Shown here piece by piece: positions 24,781 to 31,753 of a stretch of 64,000 bases of DNA. The stretch comes from Immundisolibacter sp. (lineage in GTDB: Bacteria; Pseudomonadota; Gammaproteobacteria; Immundisolibacterales; Immundisolibacteraceae): NCBI RefSeq assembly GCF_014359565.1, contig NZ_JACIZD010000011.1:1-64000 (forward strand). The letters run 5' to 3'. The notes under the pieces are model-generated. The model worked only from the letters and a program-made list of their open reading frames with translations. It had not been told where the DNA came from and searched no databases. Every line of letters begins with the position of its first letter. Position 1 is the stretch's first letter. The position numbers and the translations under genes were made by a program.

Positions 24781-27163
24781 GCGCCCTTCTCGTCTTGACG
24801 AAGCCTGTGCCCGGCCCCGTTGGGGGCGCGGCATGCCGTGTTCCTATGCCGCCCTCATCCCGTCTTCATAAGGCCTCGGCCCGACCGGGTAGGGGCGACG
24901 CATGCGTCGCCCCTACGGGTCTTAATCCCTTCTTCATAAGGTCTGGGTCCGTTCCCGCTATTATCGAAGGGGCGCTGTACTTGTGCGCGTCTTAATCCCT
25001 TCTTCATAAGGTCTGGGTCCGTTCACGTGGAGCATGGTAAATGATTACTTTCTTTCGTTTCTTAATCCCTTCTTCATAAGGTCTGGGTCCGTTCGATGGA
25101 CTGGGCGGACCCAAGCGGGTGGCGGCGTCTTAATCCCTTCTTCATAAGGTCTGGGTCCGTTCTGGCCCTGCTCGACAACCTCACCCGCGAGCTGAGTCTT
25201 AATCCCTTCTTCATAAGGTCTGGGTCCGTTCTAAAAACCATGACTAAGCAAGAGCTGGCCGCCAGTCTTAATCCCTTCTTCATAAGGTCTGGGTCCGTTC
25301 GCGACCTGCCAGACACGCAAGCAAAGCGCGAGGCGTCTTAATCCCTTCTTCATAAGGTCTGGGTCCGTTCGAAGGCTACAGCAAAGCCATCGCCACGTTT
25401 GCTTCTTAATCCCTTCTTCATAAGGTCTGGGTCCGTTCCCTTTGCGAAGGCTGGACCGCACGCTGCCAAGGGTCTTAATCCCTTCTTCATAAGGTCTGGG
25501 TCCGTTCGCCTCCCTGGTGAACAGGCTCAAGGGTGTCTCAAGGTCTTAATCCCTTCTTCATAAGGTCTGGGTCCGTTCTTGAGAAGAAGGTAGACCGCCG
25601 CAGCCGAAAGGGTCTTAATCCCTTCTTCATAAGGTCTGGGTCCGTTCGGTCTTTGCCATACACCAAATAGCCCCGGACCGAGTCTTAATCCCTTCTTCAT
25701 AAGGTCTGGGTCCGTTCGTTCTCTTGAGTTTCGTATGCACCCTGGGTGTACTGAGTCTTAATCCCTTCTTCATAAGGTCTGGGTCCGTTCTGGTCTTGTT
25801 GCCTAGTGCCTCACGATACTCGGTCTTAATCCCTTCTTCATAAGGTCTGGGTCCGTTCAGTACCGGCCGACGAATAAATTCCCTTCCTCCCGTCTTAATC
25901 CCTTCTTCATAAGGTCTGGGTCCGTTCCGCCAAAGCGGACCAATCGCGGACGCAAACCGCGTCTTAATCCCTTCTTCATAAGGTCTGGGTCCGTTCGAAG
26001 GTTACAGCAAGGCCATCGCCACGTTCGCGTCTTAATCCCTTCTTCATAAGGTCTGGGTCCGTTCGAAACACCATGCGTAACGGAGCTCGCTCCTTGGTCT
26101 TAATCCCTTCTTCATAAGGTCTGGGTCCGTTCTGAAAACGACGTGGAAGGCCTTGACGCGACCGAGGTCTTAATCCCTTCTTCATAAGGTCTGGGTCCGT
26201 TCCTTGGGTTCATCCACAGCCTTGGCTGCTACGCCGTCTTAATCCCTTCTTCATAAGGTCTGGGTCCGTTCGCGAGTGCGTGACAAGTTGTGCGGCTCTA
26301 GCGAGTCTTAATCCCTTCTTCATAAGGTCTGGGTCCGTTCCGGTAGACTTCTCACAGCCGTGGGATATTGGGTCTTAATCCCTTCTTCATAAGGTCTGGG
26401 TCCGTTCTCCTTTACCTTGTTCGGTCAGGGGATTGTCTCGGTCTTAATCCCTTCTTCATAAGGTCTGGGTCCGTTCGCGGCATTCGACGCCATACCCGCC
26501 TAGATTCCGTCTTAATCCCTTCTTCATAAGGTCTGGGTCCGTTCTCACGGGCCTGGACGGGGTATATCTCCGCTGGGTCTTAATCCCTTCTTCATAAGGT
26601 CTGGGTCCGTTCCCCTGATGACCGGCGACGTTCTCATCGTGGTAGGTCTTAATCCCTTCTTCATAAGGTCTGGGTCCGTTCTCAGGATTTGCGAGAGGCC
26701 GCAGAACGACTTGAGGTCTTAATCCCTTCTTCATAAGGTCTGGGTCCGTTCCATCACGTTCAGCGCTTCGTCCATCAACTTCGGTCTTAATCCCTTCTTC
26801 ATAAGGTCTGGGTCCGTTCCCATGCGGCAAGCTCGGCTTCGGGCGTTTCTGCGTCTTAATCCCTTCTTCATAAGGTCTGGGTCCGTTCGCTCGGGCCGGT
26901 GAAGATCGCCGAGGCGCTTCCGTCTTAATCCCTTCTTCATAAGGTCTGGGTCCGTTCGGCTGCGCTCGCCAGGATGGACAAATGAGCGCGTCTTAATCCC
27001 TTCTTCATAAGGTCTGGGTCCGTTCCCTGGCCGACGCCTACGACGCAGCGCAGGCGGCGTCTTAATCCCTTCTTCATAAGGTCTGGGTCCGTTCTATTCT
27101 ACAGAATAAATAGGCAACCAGATATTCGTCTTAATCCCTTCTTCATAAGGTCTGGGTCCGTTC
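24781..27163 (-). CRISPR. CRISPR array, 33 intact 36-base repeats plus two decayed repeats
   Basis: Intact repeats run from 24919-24954 to 27128-27163, separated by 32 spacers of 31-37 bases. Read as transcribed (minus strand), the repeat starts GAACGGACCCAGACC and ends GAAGGGATTAAGAC, so the 8-base crRNA handle would be ATTAAGAC, similar to type I/III handles. Left of the array are a decayed repeat at 24851-24886 (26 of 36 matches) and a more decayed one at about 24781-24816, both in register. Old repeats at the left and cas genes at the right put the leader end at the right. Repeats at 25059 and 25403 have T for G at the first plus-strand base, changing the last handle base. Confidence 0.97.
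24889..24916. repeat. Perfect 28-base palindrome in the oldest spacer position
   Basis: The spacer between the decayed repeat and the first intact repeat is almost entirely a perfect palindrome with arms GTAGGGGCGACGCA and TGCGTCGCCCCTAC. It resembles the REP-like arms seen at 20,925-20,988 and near 2,660. It is either a REP element that landed in the array tail or a structure serving as a terminator for the array transcript. Confidence 0.6.
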
Positions 27164-27539
27164 AGCTCCGTATATTCCCTCCTTTCAGGTCAGTCAGTTG
27201 TGCCGGGGGTTGACGATGGTTCGACCGCCCCGAGGGGTCAGGGGTTGGCGCCAGCACGTCAAGACCCTGCTCCAGAAGGTAAACGGCTTCCGGCAGGGCG
27301 CTGCGGCCGTAGAACACCCAGTCCGGTCGCTGTGGCAGCGGGTACAGCCGCACGTCGTCTTGTGGGGCGATGATGCTGTTGATGGTGGCTACCAGGTGGC
27401 GAATACCGCGGCGCGTGAAGCGCCCGACGAATACCGAGTATTGCACGGCCAGGGCTTGTTTCTTGAGCGCACGGTGCAGGGTCACCAGGCGGCGCGGTTC
27501 GCGAACGTCGTAGGCAATGAGCCAGGTCTGGGTGTTCAT
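27162..27539 (-). CDS. cas2: Cas2, second copy (extended C-terminus)
   Basis: A 125-residue Cas2. The ferredoxin-like start WLIAYDVREPRRL carries the conserved Asp at residue 11, followed by a YSVFVGRFT strand and a DDVRLYPLP strand. The family norm is about 90-100 residues; here about 28 extra residues rich in Pro, Ser and Asn follow LEQGLDVLAP. Its TGA stop (27164-27162) shares two bases with the first CRISPR repeat, so the extension is encoded by the DNA that should act as array leader. It differs strongly from the other Cas2 at 29303. It partners in the Cas1-Cas2 integrase; which Cas1 it binds is unknown. Confidence 0.88.
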   Translation of the reverse strand: MNTQTWLIAYDVREPRRLVTLHRALKKQALAVQYSVFVGRFTRRGIRHLVATINSIIAPQDDVRLYPLPQRPDWVFYGRSALPEAVYLLEQGLDVLAPTPDPSGRSNHRQPPAQLTDLKGGNIRS

Positions 27540-27582
27540 CGGATGTTGGGGGGCGGTTGTGCTGGACCGGGCCGGTGGCGGC

Positions 27583-28338
27583 TCACAGGCCGAGGCTGAA
27601 CAGGCTGGCGATCAGGCGTCGGCATGTAGCCACCAGGCCCGGCTGCAGGGATCGGTGGTAGATGGCGGCGGCGGCGGCGAGGTTGTCGGCCTGCATGGGC
27701 ACCGGCGCGGTGAGCAGTTTCCCCCGCAACGGCCATTGCAGGAGACTCTGCAAATCGTCCGCCAGATGCCCGGCCGGGCCGAGGCCGGCAAGCTGGTCGG
27801 GCGCCAGTCCAGCGCGCGTGAGCGCCGCTGCGATGTCGGCCCGCAGCAGGCTGTTCAGGCGCTGCTGGCAGCTGTCGGCCTGGGCGCCAAGACGCGCCTG
27901 CACGGCCTGGTGCAGACGCTGACGCAGGCCGTGTGCGCGCAGGACATCCTCGGGCCAGCCCAGCGCCCGGCAGGTGTAGGCGGCGCGGCGATGGTGCTGC
28001 GCCATGAGCCAGGTGTGGTATCGCTGCTCCCAGTCGGGGCGCGCGGCGGCCATTTCCAGGCGCGCGCCGAGGCCCAGGTGATCGGCCGGTACACCGCTGG
28101 CAATGCCGGTGCAGCGGTCATCGAGGTCCAGAAAGGCCACCACCAGGCCCTGCTGGACGCATGCCTGCAAGGCATCGCCGCGCCAGCCGACCGGGCCGCG
28201 GCACAGGATGTAGGACAGGCGGGCGAAGGGGTACCACACGGGTGCCAGATCGCCCGCCGTGACTTGCAGCGCCGGGCCGGCGCGCTCCACGATCAACGTG
28301 CTGCGGCCGTCAAGGTAAAGCGTCTTGCTCGGTCCCAT
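27583..28338 (-). CDS. Cas1-like protein lacking catalytic residues
   Basis: A 251-residue relative of Cas1, shorter than the usual 320-340. The N-terminal beta domain is recognisable (TLYLDGRSTLIVERAG, ARLSYILCRG, then QGLVVAFLD), matching the start of the Cas1 at 28310. The C-terminal helical domain keeps the pattern RLNSLLRADIAAAL, AGLAP and ADDLQSLL. The Glu of the GxEGxAA motif is absent, and the Gly-Phe-Leu-His motif is replaced by GLGPAG; only an Asp (residue 194 or 195) may align. The frame is intact and overlaps cas1 by 29 bases, so it is translated. It may be a structural, non-catalytic Cas1 subunit. A decaying cas1 duplicate is the alternative. Confidence 0.7.
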   Translation of the reverse strand: MGPSKTLYLDGRSTLIVERAGPALQVTAGDLAPVWYPFARLSYILCRGPVGWRGDALQACVQQGLVVAFLDLDDRCTGIASGVPADHLGLGARLEMAAARPDWEQRYHTWLMAQHHRRAAYTCRALGWPEDVLRAHGLRQRLHQAVQARLGAQADSCQQRLNSLLRADIAAALTRAGLAPDQLAGLGPAGHLADDLQSLLQWPLRGKLLTAPVPMQADNLAAAAAIYHRSLQPGLVATCRRLIASLFSLGL

Positions 28339-29299
28339 CGGGGTTCTCGGTCAGGGCGGCTGGACAGGCGGCGCGCGCGGCGGCGGCCAGGCGCCGGCAC
28401 AGGTGGCGCAGTGCCCGACGCTGCGGCGCAGCGAACTGTTCGTAAGCGACGAAGAAGGCCTGCCGGCCGGCCTTGCCCAGGCGGCAGCGACCGGCCTCGG
28501 TGTGGAAGTGATCGGCGCGCAGGGTGCGTTCGGCAAACAGCCGCCACAGCCAGCCATCCAGGCGCGGGCGCAGCGGTTCGATGAGGTCGCTGGCCAGCGA
28601 TTCGCGGCCGAAGGCCAGGCCGTGCAGAAAGCCGATGTACGGGTCCAGCCCGGCGCCGTAGGCGCTGCGCACGGCCTCGAAATGCAGCAGCGTGTAGCCG
28701 AGCGACAGGGCCGCGTTGACAGGATCCGGCGGCGGTCGGCGGCGGCGGGCGGTAAAGCCAAGCGTCGGCGGCATGACCCCGGCCAGGGCGCGAAAGTGGG
28801 CTGCGGCGGCAGCCCCTTCCAGACCGCGCAGCGTGGCCAGGTCGCCGGCCTGGTCCAGCGCCGGCAGCAGGGCGTACACAGTGTCGATGCTTTTGGTCAG
28901 ATGGCGTGACTGATCGGCCCGCTGGCGTCTGACCTGACACAGCAGGCGCCACTGACGGCGCACTTTGTGGGCCAGAAGGCGACGCGCGGTGGCGAGCGTC
29001 CAGGCCGGGTCCTGCGCCAGGCGCATCTGACCGATCCGCACGCGGGCGTCCTGATGGGGACGGCCATGGACGATGGCCACCCGCTCGCCGCTGCGGGGGC
29101 CAAGCAGCAGCACGCCGATGCCGCGCTCGGCCAATGCCCCCAGCGCACTGCTGTCGGTGCGCACGGCGCTGGTGACGACCACCCGCTCGAGCAGCGCCAG
29201 CGGCACGTCCTGCGCCGGGCCGCCGTCGGTGCGCAGACGCAGTCGGCCGGCGTGGTGGGTCACTTCCAGGCCCTTGCGGTCCAGGTACAGGGTGCCCAT
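28310..29299 (-). CDS. cas1: CRISPR-associated integrase Cas1
   Basis: A 329-residue Cas1, the metal-dependent integrase of spacer acquisition. It has the N-terminal beta domain (MGTLYLDRKGLEV) and a helical catalytic domain with all conserved metal ligands: E161 in RGLEGAAAAAHF, H226 in GLDPYIGFLHG and D238 in SLASDLIEPLRP. The PPPDPVNAALSLGYTLL signature is also present. It starts three bases after cas2 at 29303 and overlaps the cas1-like gene downstream. The C-terminal tail after residue 300 is Ala/Arg-rich. Confidence 0.93.
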   Translation of the reverse strand: MGTLYLDRKGLEVTHHAGRLRLRTDGGPAQDVPLALLERVVVTSAVRTDSSALGALAERGIGVLLLGPRSGERVAIVHGRPHQDARVRIGQMRLAQDPAWTLATARRLLAHKVRRQWRLLCQVRRQRADQSRHLTKSIDTVYALLPALDQAGDLATLRGLEGAAAAAHFRALAGVMPPTLGFTARRRRPPPDPVNAALSLGYTLLHFEAVRSAYGAGLDPYIGFLHGLAFGRESLASDLIEPLRPRLDGWLWRLFAERTLRADHFHTEAGRCRLGKAGRQAFFVAYEQFAAPQRRALRHLCRRLAAAARAACPAALTENPDGTEQDALP

Positions 29300-29302
29300 C
29301 GG

Positions 29303-29587
29303 TCAGCCGGCGTAGAAAAACGGCGGGTCGACCGCCGGCACGGCGCAACCCAGCGCCACGGTCTGCGCGCGCGGGTCCAGGCGCAGCAGGAAGAAGCGGT
29401 CGCAGCGGCTGTCCAGCAAGGCGGCCATGTCGGCCAGCAGGGCGCCTTTCTCGGCCGGCGTCAGAAAGCACTCGTAGACGGATTTCTGACCGCCGGTGGC
29501 GTAGGCGCGCACCAGATCGAGCGCGGCTTGCAGCCGGCGCGGGCAGGCCACGTCGTAGGCGGCCAGATGCAGGGCACGGTCGGGCAT
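29303..29587 (-). CDS. cas2: Cas2, first copy
   Basis: A 94-residue Cas2 of normal size. LHLAAYDVACPRRL holds the conserved Asp at residue 12, then QKSVYECFLT and a C-terminal RFFLLRLDPRAQ strand. ATG at 29587 has GGGAG six bases upstream and is preferred over the longer frame. Immediately followed by cas1 (three bases). It probably forms the dimer bridging two Cas1 dimers, alone or with the second Cas2 at 27162. Confidence 0.9.
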   Translation of the reverse strand: MPDRALHLAAYDVACPRRLQAALDLVRAYATGGQKSVYECFLTPAEKGALLADMAALLDSRCDRFFLLRLDPRAQTVALGCAVPAVDPPFFYAG

Positions 29588-29697
29588 GGTGGGCTCCCGG
29601 TGGCAGGAAGCCGGTATCGAATCACGAATTCCGGCGGCCGCCCGCTGCGGCAAGCTTGCGGACCCGCAGCACCGGCTGGTCGTTCATCCGGGCCCGG

Positions 29698-30213
29698 TCA
29701 GGCCGGACGCAGCGGGCCGAAATTGCTGTATTGGCCGGCTTCGTGGTGATAAAGCAGCAGCCGTGCGCCGTTGGCGAACTCGGCGCCCACCAGCGCCGCC
29801 ACCACGGCCGGTCCGGCATGAAAATAATGGATGCAGTCGGCGCCGGCTTTCAGGAGTTGCGCTGCGACGTGGCGCAGCTCGCGGTGCAGGTCGGGCATGT
29901 CCTGCGCGGTGATGGCCCGGTCGCGCCGCACCACCAGGATGCGCTCATCGGGAATGGCGGCCAGCGCCGGCTGCTGGCGGCGGAAATTCTCGACGCTGGC
30001 CCGCACGTCCTTGCCGGCCAACAGGTCGACGATCAGGATGGCCGGGCGCTCGCCGGGCTGGCGGCGGATGGCGTTGAACCAGCGCCGTTCGCGCCGACGG
30101 CGGCCGAACACCACATCCCACCAGGTCCACACGATGGGCACCAGCGCCAGCAAGCCCAGCACGACCCCGATGGGGTCCAGCCAGTCGGCGATGAAGGCGC
30201 GCAGCGCGTCCAT
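29698..30213 (-). CDS. Membrane-anchored SAVED-domain protein (predicted cyclic-oligonucleotide effector)
   Basis: A 171-residue protein with one transmembrane helix at about residues 14-32 (IGVVLGLLALVPIVWTWW), a basic RRRRER stretch, and a soluble domain at about 55-165. The end of this domain (DCIHYFHAGPAVVAALVGAE, then LLLYHHEAGQY) has the hallmark of SAVED domains, which sense cyclic oligonucleotides in CBASS and in some type III CRISPR systems. Type III effectors with a membrane helix are thought to permeabilise or depolarise the membrane when activated. It lies three bases after csx16 and upstream of cas2. The SAVED call is by motif reading only; a CARF-like variant is possible. Confidence 0.65.
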   Translation of the reverse strand: MDALRAFIADWLDPIGVVLGLLALVPIVWTWWDVVFGRRRRERRWFNAIRRQPGERPAILIVDLLAGKDVRASVENFRRQQPALAAIPDERILVVRRDRAITAQDMPDLHRELRHVAAQLLKAGADCIHYFHAGPAVVAALVGAEFANGARLLLYHHEAGQYSNFGPLRPA

Positions 30214-30216
30214 TGC

Positions 30217-30513
30217 TCAACTCCCCACGCGCCGCACGCAGTATTCCTCCAGCCGCGCGCCGCAGGCGGCCATGTCGGCGGCGCTCAGCTCCCGCCCGCG
30301 CCAGTCCGGCGGCAGGTCCAGTGCCAGGTGCACGTAACGCGCGCCCTGGCTGCAAACCGCCGCGGCCAGGTTCACCGGCAGGGTACCGATGACGGTATCG
30401 CCGGCGCCGACCTCGGCCGGGTCCAGGTGCGCCAGCAGCCGGTCCACGGCCAGACCCTGCGCCTGCGCCCAGGCCGCCGCGCCGGGATGGCGGGAGACGA
30501 AGAAGGTGGTCAT
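30217..30513 (-). CDS. csx16: CRISPR-associated protein Csx16
   Basis: A 98-residue protein matching Csx16 (VVA1548 family): the opening TTFFVSRHPGAAAWAQAQG, then DTVIGTLPVNLAA, YVHLALDLPPDWRGREL and a closing ARLEEYCVRR. Csx16 is found almost only in type III loci, and I recall recent work assigning it ring-nuclease activity that degrades cyclic oligoadenylates. Next to a SAVED membrane protein, such an off-switch makes sense. Four bases after cmr6, same transcript. Confidence 0.88.
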   Translation of the reverse strand: MTTFFVSRHPGAAAWAQAQGLAVDRLLAHLDPAEVGAGDTVIGTLPVNLAAAVCSQGARYVHLALDLPPDWRGRELSAADMAACGARLEEYCVRRVGS

Positions 30514-30517
30514 GGCG

Positions 30518-31753
30518 TCATTTACCGCCCAGCCAGGCTTTCACCAGCAGGGTGTTCTGGTAGTCCTTGTCCTTCTCGGGCTTTTTGGCTTGGCTGGATT
30601 CCTTCCACTGGCCTTTCGCCTCCCGCATTCTGGCTTCCAGCCAGCGAGCCACGGCGATCTTGTCCTCGCCCTGCCAGCGGCCCTGCTTGACGGCGCCGAT
30701 GACCGCCGAAAGTTCAGGTTGATTCTTATCCGGGCGCTGGTCCAGGAACTCGGCGATGGATCGCTCGATGGGACTCATTCTTTCCAGTGCTTCTGCATGC
30801 TCCCGGGCCTCGCGCTGTGCTGCCAGCTCGGCTTGTTGTCGCGCCTCGTGTTCGATCCGCTCTCTTTCGCGACGCTGTTCTGCCTGCCGATCCCGTGTCA
30901 TGGCGCCGTACCCCACTGCCGTCTTGGCGCCAAAGCCGAGCCATTCGAAGGCGTGTTCGAAGGCTGCGGTGAGCAGCCTCTGCCACTGCGGCTTGCCATC
31001 GGCGTCGTTTTCGAGCAGCGCCGGCGCCAGGCGACCCAGGTGTGCCCTGTCGCAGATGACGTGAAAGCTGAAGTCCGAGCCCGGCGGCACGGTCAGGAAA
31101 CTGATGGGTGTGGGCTGGCCGGAGTCGTGGGGAGTGACGCTGTCTCCTGACTTGCGCTCCGGTTTTTGCTGGTAGTAGTGCGACTGGTGCGGGGTCATGA
31201 TTTCGACCAATAGGCTGTCGCCGGCGATCCGGGGGATCACGTCCCAGAAGCTCAGCGCGCCGCGCACGTGGTCTGAGTCGCTGCCAGACGCTACGGGGCC
31301 AAACAGCACGTCGCACATTGACAGCGCGACAACCTTTTTCTGTATCACCACGGAAAACGGCTTGTCGTCATCGGGCCGCCAGCCGGCTGCGTCACCCCAA
31401 TCGCCGCTGGCCAGCTCCCGCGCCGCCTGGCGCAGCCCGCCCTTGACGCCGGAGCCCGGAAGATACGGCAGGCCATAGGGATTCAGGAAGGCAAACCCGT
31501 TTTCCAGCGGGTGTTCGTTGCCAAGGCCGGTGGTGAAGGGCGCGGTAGCTCTGGCATCCAGGCACAGTCCTTCGGCGGCTGTAACCATGTCGAACAGTCG
31601 TTGCTGTCGGCTTCCCAGCGCGCTCATGGATGCGCGATCGGAGGCAGTCAGGCGGGTCACCTTCTTCCAGGCTTCGCGCGCGGCAGAGTCGTTCTTGTTC
31701 CACAGCTCCGGCAAGCGCTGTTGACTGATTAGCTGGGCAATGGTTGCGTCCAT
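30518..31753 (-). pseudogene. cmr6: Cmr6, type III-B RAMP subunit, 5' end probably removed by the prophage
   Basis: The remaining 411 codons carry the Cmr6 signature: TGLGNEHPLENGFAFLNPYG, then LPYLPGSGVKGGLRQAAREL, HDSGQPTPISFLTVPPGSDF and the glycine-rich GFGAKTAVGYG. A helical C-terminal extension follows. Cmr6 caps the crRNA-bound Cmr complex. The frame stays open for 54 codons upstream of the ATG at 31753, up to a TAG at 31916-31918, and that stretch (SRAATREDQEREVTTRAAKG and onward) looks like the missing N-terminal part. Prophage sequence begins right after. Genes cmr1-cmr5 are not on this side. A functional shortened protein from the internal ATG cannot be excluded. Confidence 0.8.

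What the first reader, a model, noticed from the sequence alone, without database searches (positions are those of the whole stretch)
27162..29587. Doubled, mirror-ordered adaptation module: cas2-cas1-cas1'-cas2' with a catalytically empty second Cas1
Four adjacent genes read in one direction: cas2 (94 residues), cas1 (329, with E161/H226/D238), a 251-residue Cas1-like protein without the Glu and His ligands, and a second, clearly different cas2 (125). All frames are intact and tightly packed, which argues against decay. In known Cas1-Cas2 integrases only one Cas1 of each dimer does chemistry, so a dedicated non-catalytic Cas1 plus a second Cas2 could form an obligately asymmetric complex that fixes spacer orientation. 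I know of no named system with this arrangement.
Basis: partly seen in the sequence, partly recalled or inferred. Interest (0 to 1): 0.88.

Follow-up and report, generated by a model that had tools for sequence, protein, structure and literature searches.

The report
CRISPR memory module with inactive twin
Many bacteria with type III CRISPR immunity carry a conserved four-gene version of the machine that stores memories of viruses, in which a second, catalytically dead copy of the integrase Cas1 and a second Cas2 sit beside the normal pair; this points to a built-in lopsided integrase that nobody appears to have studied.

Summary
On the minus strand lie cas2 (29303-29587), cas1 (28310-29299), cas1' (27583-28338) and cas2' (27162-27539), followed directly by a 33-repeat CRISPR array. 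The module belongs to a type III-B locus. It is not a local oddity: 85 loci carry exactly cas2-cas1-cas1'-cas2', always in that order and direction, typically next to type III-A or III-B genes, in Pseudomonadota, Nitrospirota, Acidobacteriota and others. Cas1' is a full-length Cas1 homologue (AF2 pLDDT 90; top PDB hits are Cas1) without the catalytic Glu region and, in this window, without His. Its partner Cas1 keeps E/H/D in 92 of 92 sequences. cas1' is under purifying selection (dN/dS 0.14-0.64). Loci with cas2-cas1-cas2' and no cas1' arose at least three times, so Cas1' is dispensable but two Cas2s are kept. Best reading: Cas1' is a dedicated non-catalytic protomer in a heteromeric Cas1-Cas1'-Cas2-Cas2' integrase. 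The orientation idea is not supported: spacers are about 80% antisense to coding, but ordinary type III (72%) and loci without cas1' (76%) overlap. The Cas1' family is already a PADLOC profile ("Cas1, diverged variant, second in the loci"). I found no paper on the module.

The parts
29303..29587 (-). cas2: upstream, more divergent Cas2 (94 aa), motif GGQKSvyEC
   Evidence: Pfam CRISPR_Cas2 3.2e-7 for the longer ORF 29303-29653; orthologues in all 99 module loci; ordinary Cas2 proteins score better with the cas2' profile than with this one in 27 of 33 cases
28310..29299 (-). cas1: catalytic Cas1 (329 aa) with E161/H226/D238
   Evidence: Pfam Cas_Cas1 2.1e-68; triad invariant in 92/92 module Cas1; one clade, SH-aLRT 100, against 21 other Cas1
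27583..28338 (-). cas1': non-catalytic Cas1 homologue (251 aa); Glu segment absent, His replaced, Asp195 kept
   Evidence: PADLOC PDLC01185 2.8e-12; AF2 pLDDT 89.8, pTM 0.78; Foldseek top hits are Cas1, TMq up to 0.78; hhalign to Cas1 99.4%, E 2.6e-21 over 260 columns
27162..27539 (-). cas2': second, more canonical Cas2 (125 aa) with a C-terminal tail that runs to the array
   Evidence: Pfam CRISPR_Cas2 5.2e-13; stop codon overlaps the first repeat by 2 nt
24919..27163 (-). CRISPR array: 33 repeats of 36 nt (GAACGGACCCAGACCTTATGAAGAAGGGATTAAGAC) and 32 spacers of 31-37 nt; leader end at the cas2' side, degenerate repeat near 24851-24886 at the far end
   Evidence: no match to this repeat was listed elsewhere in the genome; same 3' repeat motif in the other module arrays
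29698..30213 (-). SAVED/CARF-like protein with two TM segments (type III ancillary sensor)
   Evidence: PADLOC PDLC01160 'CARF, 2 TMs' 2.5e-84; SAVED_TM 2.7e-50
30217..30513 (-). csx16
   Evidence: NCBIfam TIGR02620 1.1e-33
30518..31753 (-). cmr6 (type III-B RAMP); cmr4, cmr3 and cas10 lie about 36 kb away on the same contig, beyond the window
   Evidence: NCBIfam TIGR01898 2.9e-29; L147 genes

Best explanation
The four genes encode one heteromeric spacer integrase that serves a type III-B system. Cas1 supplies both active sites. Cas1' takes the place of the protomer that is already idle in each dimer of an ordinary Cas1-Cas2 integrase: it holds DNA and bridges to Cas2 but does no chemistry. 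Cas2 and Cas2' would form a heterodimer at the centre, so that the complex is no longer two-fold symmetric. Its two ends can then differ in what they bind (leader side or spacer side, or one prespacer end or the other). Shown: conservation as a unit, the Cas1 fold, loss of the active site in Cas1' with full retention in Cas1, purifying selection, co-inheritance, and a tight link to type III genes and to arrays of one repeat family. Inferred: physical association, stoichiometry, and what the asymmetry is used for.
For: Order cas2-cas1-cas1'-cas2' in 85 of 85 loci where all four were found, plus 14 loci with cas2-cas1-cas2'. Module Cas1 form one clade. Distances of the four proteins correlate, r 0.45-0.73, 0 of 300 permutations as high. 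Cas1' fold is Cas1 with full-length profile homology. Active site invariant in Cas1 and gone in Cas1'. dN/dS of cas1' 0.14-0.64. Overlapping or near-touching genes suggest translational coupling. [quoted passage not shown] the prespacer 3' ends thread only into Cas1a and Cas1a' (PMC6395717).
Against: No direct evidence of a complex; the single-chain four-gene fold gave pTM 0.49 and no interface could be read. cas1' was lost at least three times while cas2, cas1 and cas2' stayed, so it is not obligatory for the module. Cas1' evolves faster than its partners. Most evidence is genomic.
Confidence: 0.62

Rival explanations
1. The asymmetric complex sets spacer orientation: Cas1' or the Cas2 pair marks one end, so that new spacers enter in the direction that gives crRNA antisense to mRNA.
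For: Spacers of four-gene arrays are mostly antisense to coding: ML fraction 0.80 [0.74-0.86] over 1092 spacers, against 0.54 [0.48-0.62] for type I controls; highest at the leader-proximal end (0.84). Type III adaptation is reported to be PAM-independent, so some other orientation cue would be useful (PMC9048733).
Against: Ordinary type III loci with one cas1 and one cas2 give 0.72 [0.61-0.79], and loci without cas1' give 0.76 [0.65-0.94]; the intervals overlap. Selection for productive spacers explains the bias as well. No protospacers were found to check it directly.
Confidence: 0.2
2. Two integrases share one catalytic Cas1: Cas1-Cas2 and Cas1-Cas2' act separately (for example on different prespacer types), and Cas1' regulates the switch or inhibits.
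For: Both Cas2s keep the N-terminal YD motif and are clearly different; three-gene loci keep both Cas2s without Cas1'.
Against: Strict gene order and co-inheritance of all four and one repeat family for all arrays suggest one machine.
Confidence: 0.18
3. cas1' is a decaying duplicate without function.
For: No catalytic residues; fastest evolving of the four; lost at least three times.
Against: Intact frames in the 85 four-gene loci across several phyla, dN/dS well below 1, well-folded model. Only one fragment with an internal stop was seen (G180, L024).
Confidence: 0.04

Closest known systems
PADLOC-DB PDLC01185 'Cas1, diverged variant, second in the loci'
   Same: Matches 54 of 58 Cas1' proteins, best E 3.6e-121, and 'second in the loci' describes the position.
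   Different: A profile only: the label says nothing of the second Cas2, the lost active site, the three-gene variant or a mechanism.
Canonical Cas1-Cas2 integrase (E. coli type I-E; 4 Cas1 + 2 Cas2)
   Same: Cas1 with E/H/D, Cas2 folds, array next to the genes; in each Cas1 dimer only one protomer receives the prespacer end (PMC6395717).
   Different: There both protomers come from one gene and the complex is two-fold symmetric; here a separate gene encodes a dead Cas1 and there are two cas2 genes.
Cas1-2/3 (type I-F) and Cas4-assisted adaptation
   Same: Other ways to add an extra component to a symmetric integrase and steer orientation (PMC12259127).
   Different: They use a Cas3 fusion, IHF or Cas4; here the extra parts are paralogues of Cas1 and Cas2.
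Thermotoga maritima Cas1 TM1797 (PDB 4xtk)
   Same: Best overall fold match to the Cas1' model by query TM-score, 0.78.
   Different: 11-12% identity in those alignments; Cas1' lacks the active-site segment.

Membership tests
Cas1 (PF01867) - for Cas1' | Cas1 fold (N-terminal beta domain, C-terminal alpha domain) | tested here: met
   AF2 pLDDT 89.8; Foldseek prob 1.00, top 50 PDB hits are Cas1 or the homologous casposase
Cas1 (PF01867) - for Cas1' | Sequence score above the curated Pfam cut-off | tested here: not met
   20.5 bits against 22.3; profile-profile comparison is decisive all the same, E 2.6e-21
Cas1 (PF01867) - for Cas1' | Catalytic Glu/His/Asp triad | tested here: not met
   Glu segment missing, His replaced in the window; Asp kept in 61 of 78 family members
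PADLOC PDLC01185 diverged second Cas1 | Profile match and second position after cas1 | tested here: met
   E 2.8e-12; 54 of 58 relatives match; cas1' directly after cas1
Canonical Cas1-Cas2 adaptation module | One cas1 and one cas2 gene | tested here: not met
   Two of each in 85 loci; one cas1 and two cas2 in 14
Canonical Cas1-Cas2 adaptation module | Catalytic Cas1 with E/H/D | tested here: met
   92 of 92
Type III-B CRISPR-Cas | Cas10 and Cmr RAMP genes with a CRISPR array | tested here: met
   cas10, cmr3, cmr4 on L147; cmr6 in the window; but the operon is split by a Mu-like prophage and I did not identify cmr1 or cmr5
Obligately asymmetric heteromeric integrase | Cas1:Cas1' and Cas2:Cas2' associate in one complex | tested here: inconclusive
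   Read-through fold of all four genes of L127: pTM 0.49; no interface data returned
Obligately asymmetric heteromeric integrase | Cas1' needed for oriented spacers | tested here: inconclusive
   Orientation bias similar without cas1' and in ordinary type III

The most novel reading that the evidence does not exclude
A naturally asymmetric CRISPR integrase, made of two Cas1 paralogues (one dead) and two Cas2 paralogues, whose asymmetry distinguishes leader side from spacer side, and possibly prespacer orientation, in PAM-independent type III adaptation.
Probability: 0.35. Interest if true: 0.82.

Novelty: new variant of a known kind. Interest (0 to 1): 0.62.

Why it matters
Known Cas1-Cas2 integrases are symmetric, yet must insert spacers at one end of the array and in one direction; how a symmetric machine does so is an open question (PMC12259127). 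A module in which the two halves are encoded by different genes allows each half to be mutated alone. It would also be a clear case of an enzyme homodimer resolved into a catalytic and a structural paralogue. The natural three-gene variants are ready-made controls, and two sit on sequenced plasmids.

Tried and rejected
(1) Decay of cas1': rejected. (2) Cas1' fixing spacer orientation: tested with a codon-based strand test on spacers, with type I, type II and ordinary type III controls; the bias is real but not specific. The small type II set also looked biased (0.72-0.78, 116 spacers), which I cannot explain, so the absolute values need care. The two-locus set that I labelled RT/III holds a Cas4-Cas1 fusion in this genome, not an RT, and was too small to use. 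(3) Protospacer search: none in viral contigs for one degenerate spacer pattern, and only one weak hit in the phage collection. (4) Four-gene complex from one read-through chain (L127, TGA read as Trp): the subunits fold but pTM is only 0.49. (5) First alignment for that job placed cas1'-cas2' rows on Cas1 and was discarded. (6) search for related loci with the Cas1' alignment failed, too divergent; I used the Cas1 alignment instead. (7) One origin of the three-gene form: rejected by the AU test, p 1e-49. (8) att repeats for the prophage: none of 15 bp or more found, as expected for a transposable phage. (9) Seven literature searches found no description of the module; the library holds open-licence papers only.
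Full report
WHAT IS THERE. All features lie on the minus strand and read towards lower coordinates: cmr6 (30518-31753), csx16 (30217-30513), a SAVED/CARF protein with two TM segments (29698-30213), cas2 (29303-29587), cas1 (28310-29299), cas1' (27583-28338), cas2' (27162-27539) and a CRISPR array (24919-27163). The cas1' start lies inside the end of cas1. The stop codon of cas2' overlaps the first repeat by two bases, so any leader must lie in the 3' part of cas2'. The array has 33 nearly identical 36-nt repeats and 32 spacers; a degenerate repeat marks the end far from cas2'.

CAS1' IS A CAS1 WITHOUT CHEMISTRY. By sequence alone it falls just under the Pfam Cas1 cut-off. The family profile of Cas1' aligns with the module's Cas1 family over 260 columns (99.4%, E 2.6e-21). 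AlphaFold2 with 58 relatives gives pLDDT 89.8 and pTM 0.78, and the top 50 PDB matches are Cas1 or casposase chains. In the deepest clade (Nitrospirota, Deltaproteobacteria, Aminicenantes) the motif GLDPhlGvlHR..nFGlalDi of Cas1' can be read against GLDPtIGfyHqfeyGrESLAcDl of Cas1, which ties the two families together by eye. There the His is often still present; in the window's clade it is gone, while the Asp persists in 61 of 78. The Glu segment (GxEGxAAxYF) has no counterpart in the profile alignment. In contrast all 92 module Cas1 keep E, H and D.

IT IS CONSERVED AND SELECTED. Searches of whole genomes and of GTDB contigs gave loci that I annotated with profiles built here. 85 loci (79 with distinct Cas1) hold cas2-cas1-cas1'-cas2', always in that order and on one strand; 14 hold cas2-cas1-cas2' with no room for cas1' (gaps of -12 to 61 bp, against about 800 bp otherwise). 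In the class of the window's genome 20 of 369 genomes have a Cas1' match. Host groups include Pseudomonadota (Ectothiorhodospira, Thiocapsa, Thiothrix, Zoogloea, Rhodoferax, Methylococcaceae), Nitrospirota, Acidobacteriota, Deltaproteobacteria and Aminicenantes; a contig labelled as an archaeon is a 3.5-kb MAG piece and may be misplaced. dN/dS of cas1' in pairs with unsaturated dS runs from 0.14 to 0.64 (window against its congener 0.35), always below 1 and usually above that of cas1. Distances of the four proteins correlate.

HISTORY. Module Cas1 proteins form one clade against other Cas1 (SH-aLRT 100; 100/99 in the careful 54-row tree). The three-gene form needs at least three changes on the tree, and one clade is rejected (p 1e-49). 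With the four-gene Nitrospirota/Deltaproteobacteria group branching first, repeated loss of cas1' is the simplest account, although counts of changes alone cannot tell gain from loss. Ordinary Cas2 proteins score better with the cas2' profile than with the upstream cas2 profile (27 of 33). I therefore read cas1-cas2' as the ordinary pair, with an extra cas2 added upstream and a dead cas1 inserted between (inference). Two three-gene modules sit on RefSeq plasmids, of Sphaerotilus sulfidivorans and Aeromonas media, where they are annotated simply as Cas2, Cas1, Cas2.

CONTEXT. Conserved neighbours are Cas6, Csx1, Csx16, Cmr and Csm proteins, that is type III-A and III-B. Arrays start a median 121 bp after cas2' (31 arrays). 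Their repeats share the 3' motif CCCTGA..AAGGGATTAAGAC or close variants of it, read in the direction of the cas genes. Spacers are 33-34 nt, shorter than the 38 nt of ordinary type III loci in my sample.

HOW IT PROBABLY WORKS. In ordinary integrases four identical Cas1 flank a Cas2 dimer; the prespacer 3' ends enter only one Cas1 of each dimer (PMC6395717) and the inactive Cas1 subunits wall the repeat channel of a C2-symmetric complex (PMC12259127). A Cas1 gene that keeps the idle role and drops the active site, inherited with a second Cas2, fits a heteromer in which Cas1 does the chemistry and Cas1' holds DNA. Shown here: fold, loss of the active site, conservation, selection, co-inheritance. 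Inferred: binding, stoichiometry, use. A weak lead: the Cas1' model fits chains B and D of several E. coli integrase entries better than chains A and C (for example 5ds4: 0.67, 0.67 against 0.51, 0.51), as if it prefers one of the two protomer shapes; which chains are idle I did not verify. A single-chain fold of all four genes from L127, read through TGA, folded each part but gave pTM 0.49, which decides nothing.

ORIENTATION TEST. Spacers were scored for coding potential on each strand with codon models of their loci, with base composition normalised. The crRNA strand is antisense to coding in 0.80 [0.74-0.86] of 1092 four-gene spacers, 0.76 [0.65-0.94] of 238 three-gene spacers, 0.72 [0.61-0.79] of 159 ordinary type III spacers and 0.54 [0.48-0.62] of 376 type I spacers; true sense fragments were called right in 75% of cases. 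Module arrays are thus built for RNA targeting, but neither Cas1' nor the module is shown to be the cause, since selection on ordinary type III gives nearly the same.

KNOWN OR NEW. PADLOC already contains the family as 'Cas1, diverged variant, second in the loci' (54 of 58 match). I found no paper that describes the four-gene module, the second Cas2, the three-gene form or a function (the 2025 classification PMC12669027 returned none of the terms for a second or inactivated Cas1). Only open-licence papers were searchable, so a description elsewhere cannot be excluded. I rate it a new variant of a known kind.

Noticed in passing
window 31754-64000 and L147 1-13922: A Mu-like transposable prophage of about 36 kb (Gam, transposition protein, terminase, portal, tape measure and tail genes) lies inside the type III-B operon, between cmr4 and cmr6; I did not identify cmr5, so the effector may be broken.
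   Followed up: partly
window spacers at about 25997-26028 and 25371-25402: Spacers 17 and 26 differ at three positions, all synonymous when read as coding on the plus strand (EGYSKAIATF); same boundaries and direction, as if the same site was captured twice from two phage variants. No target found.
   Followed up: partly
window 27128-27220: The CRISPR leader must overlap the coding end of cas2'; in L115 and L132 the array also starts within about 20 bp of the end of cas2'.
   Followed up: partly
L081, L087, L100, L107-L109, L115, L119-L122, L124, L169, L190, L191: A three-gene variant cas2-cas1-cas2' (two Cas2, one Cas1), also on plasmids of Sphaerotilus and Aeromonas; repeats there are mostly 36 nt, against mostly 37 nt with four genes.
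   Followed up: partly
G000 C3 (L149) and C26 (L148): The genome has two more adaptation modules: a Cas4-Cas1 fusion with Cas2 and a 31-repeat array, and an ordinary cas1-cas2 with a GGATTGAAAC-type array of 22 repeats.
   Followed up: partly
module loci versus L168-L188: Spacers of module arrays are 33-34 nt, of ordinary type III arrays about 38 nt, a possible difference in the integrase ruler.
   Followed up: no
L154, L156, L162, L164, L165: Spacers of five type II-like arrays also looked mostly antisense to coding (0.72-0.78, 116 spacers); unexplained, perhaps a PAM effect or a wrong assumed repeat direction.
   Followed up: no
L140: In a Candidatus Kuenenia module about 2.4 kb separates cas1' and cas2'; not examined.
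   Followed up: no
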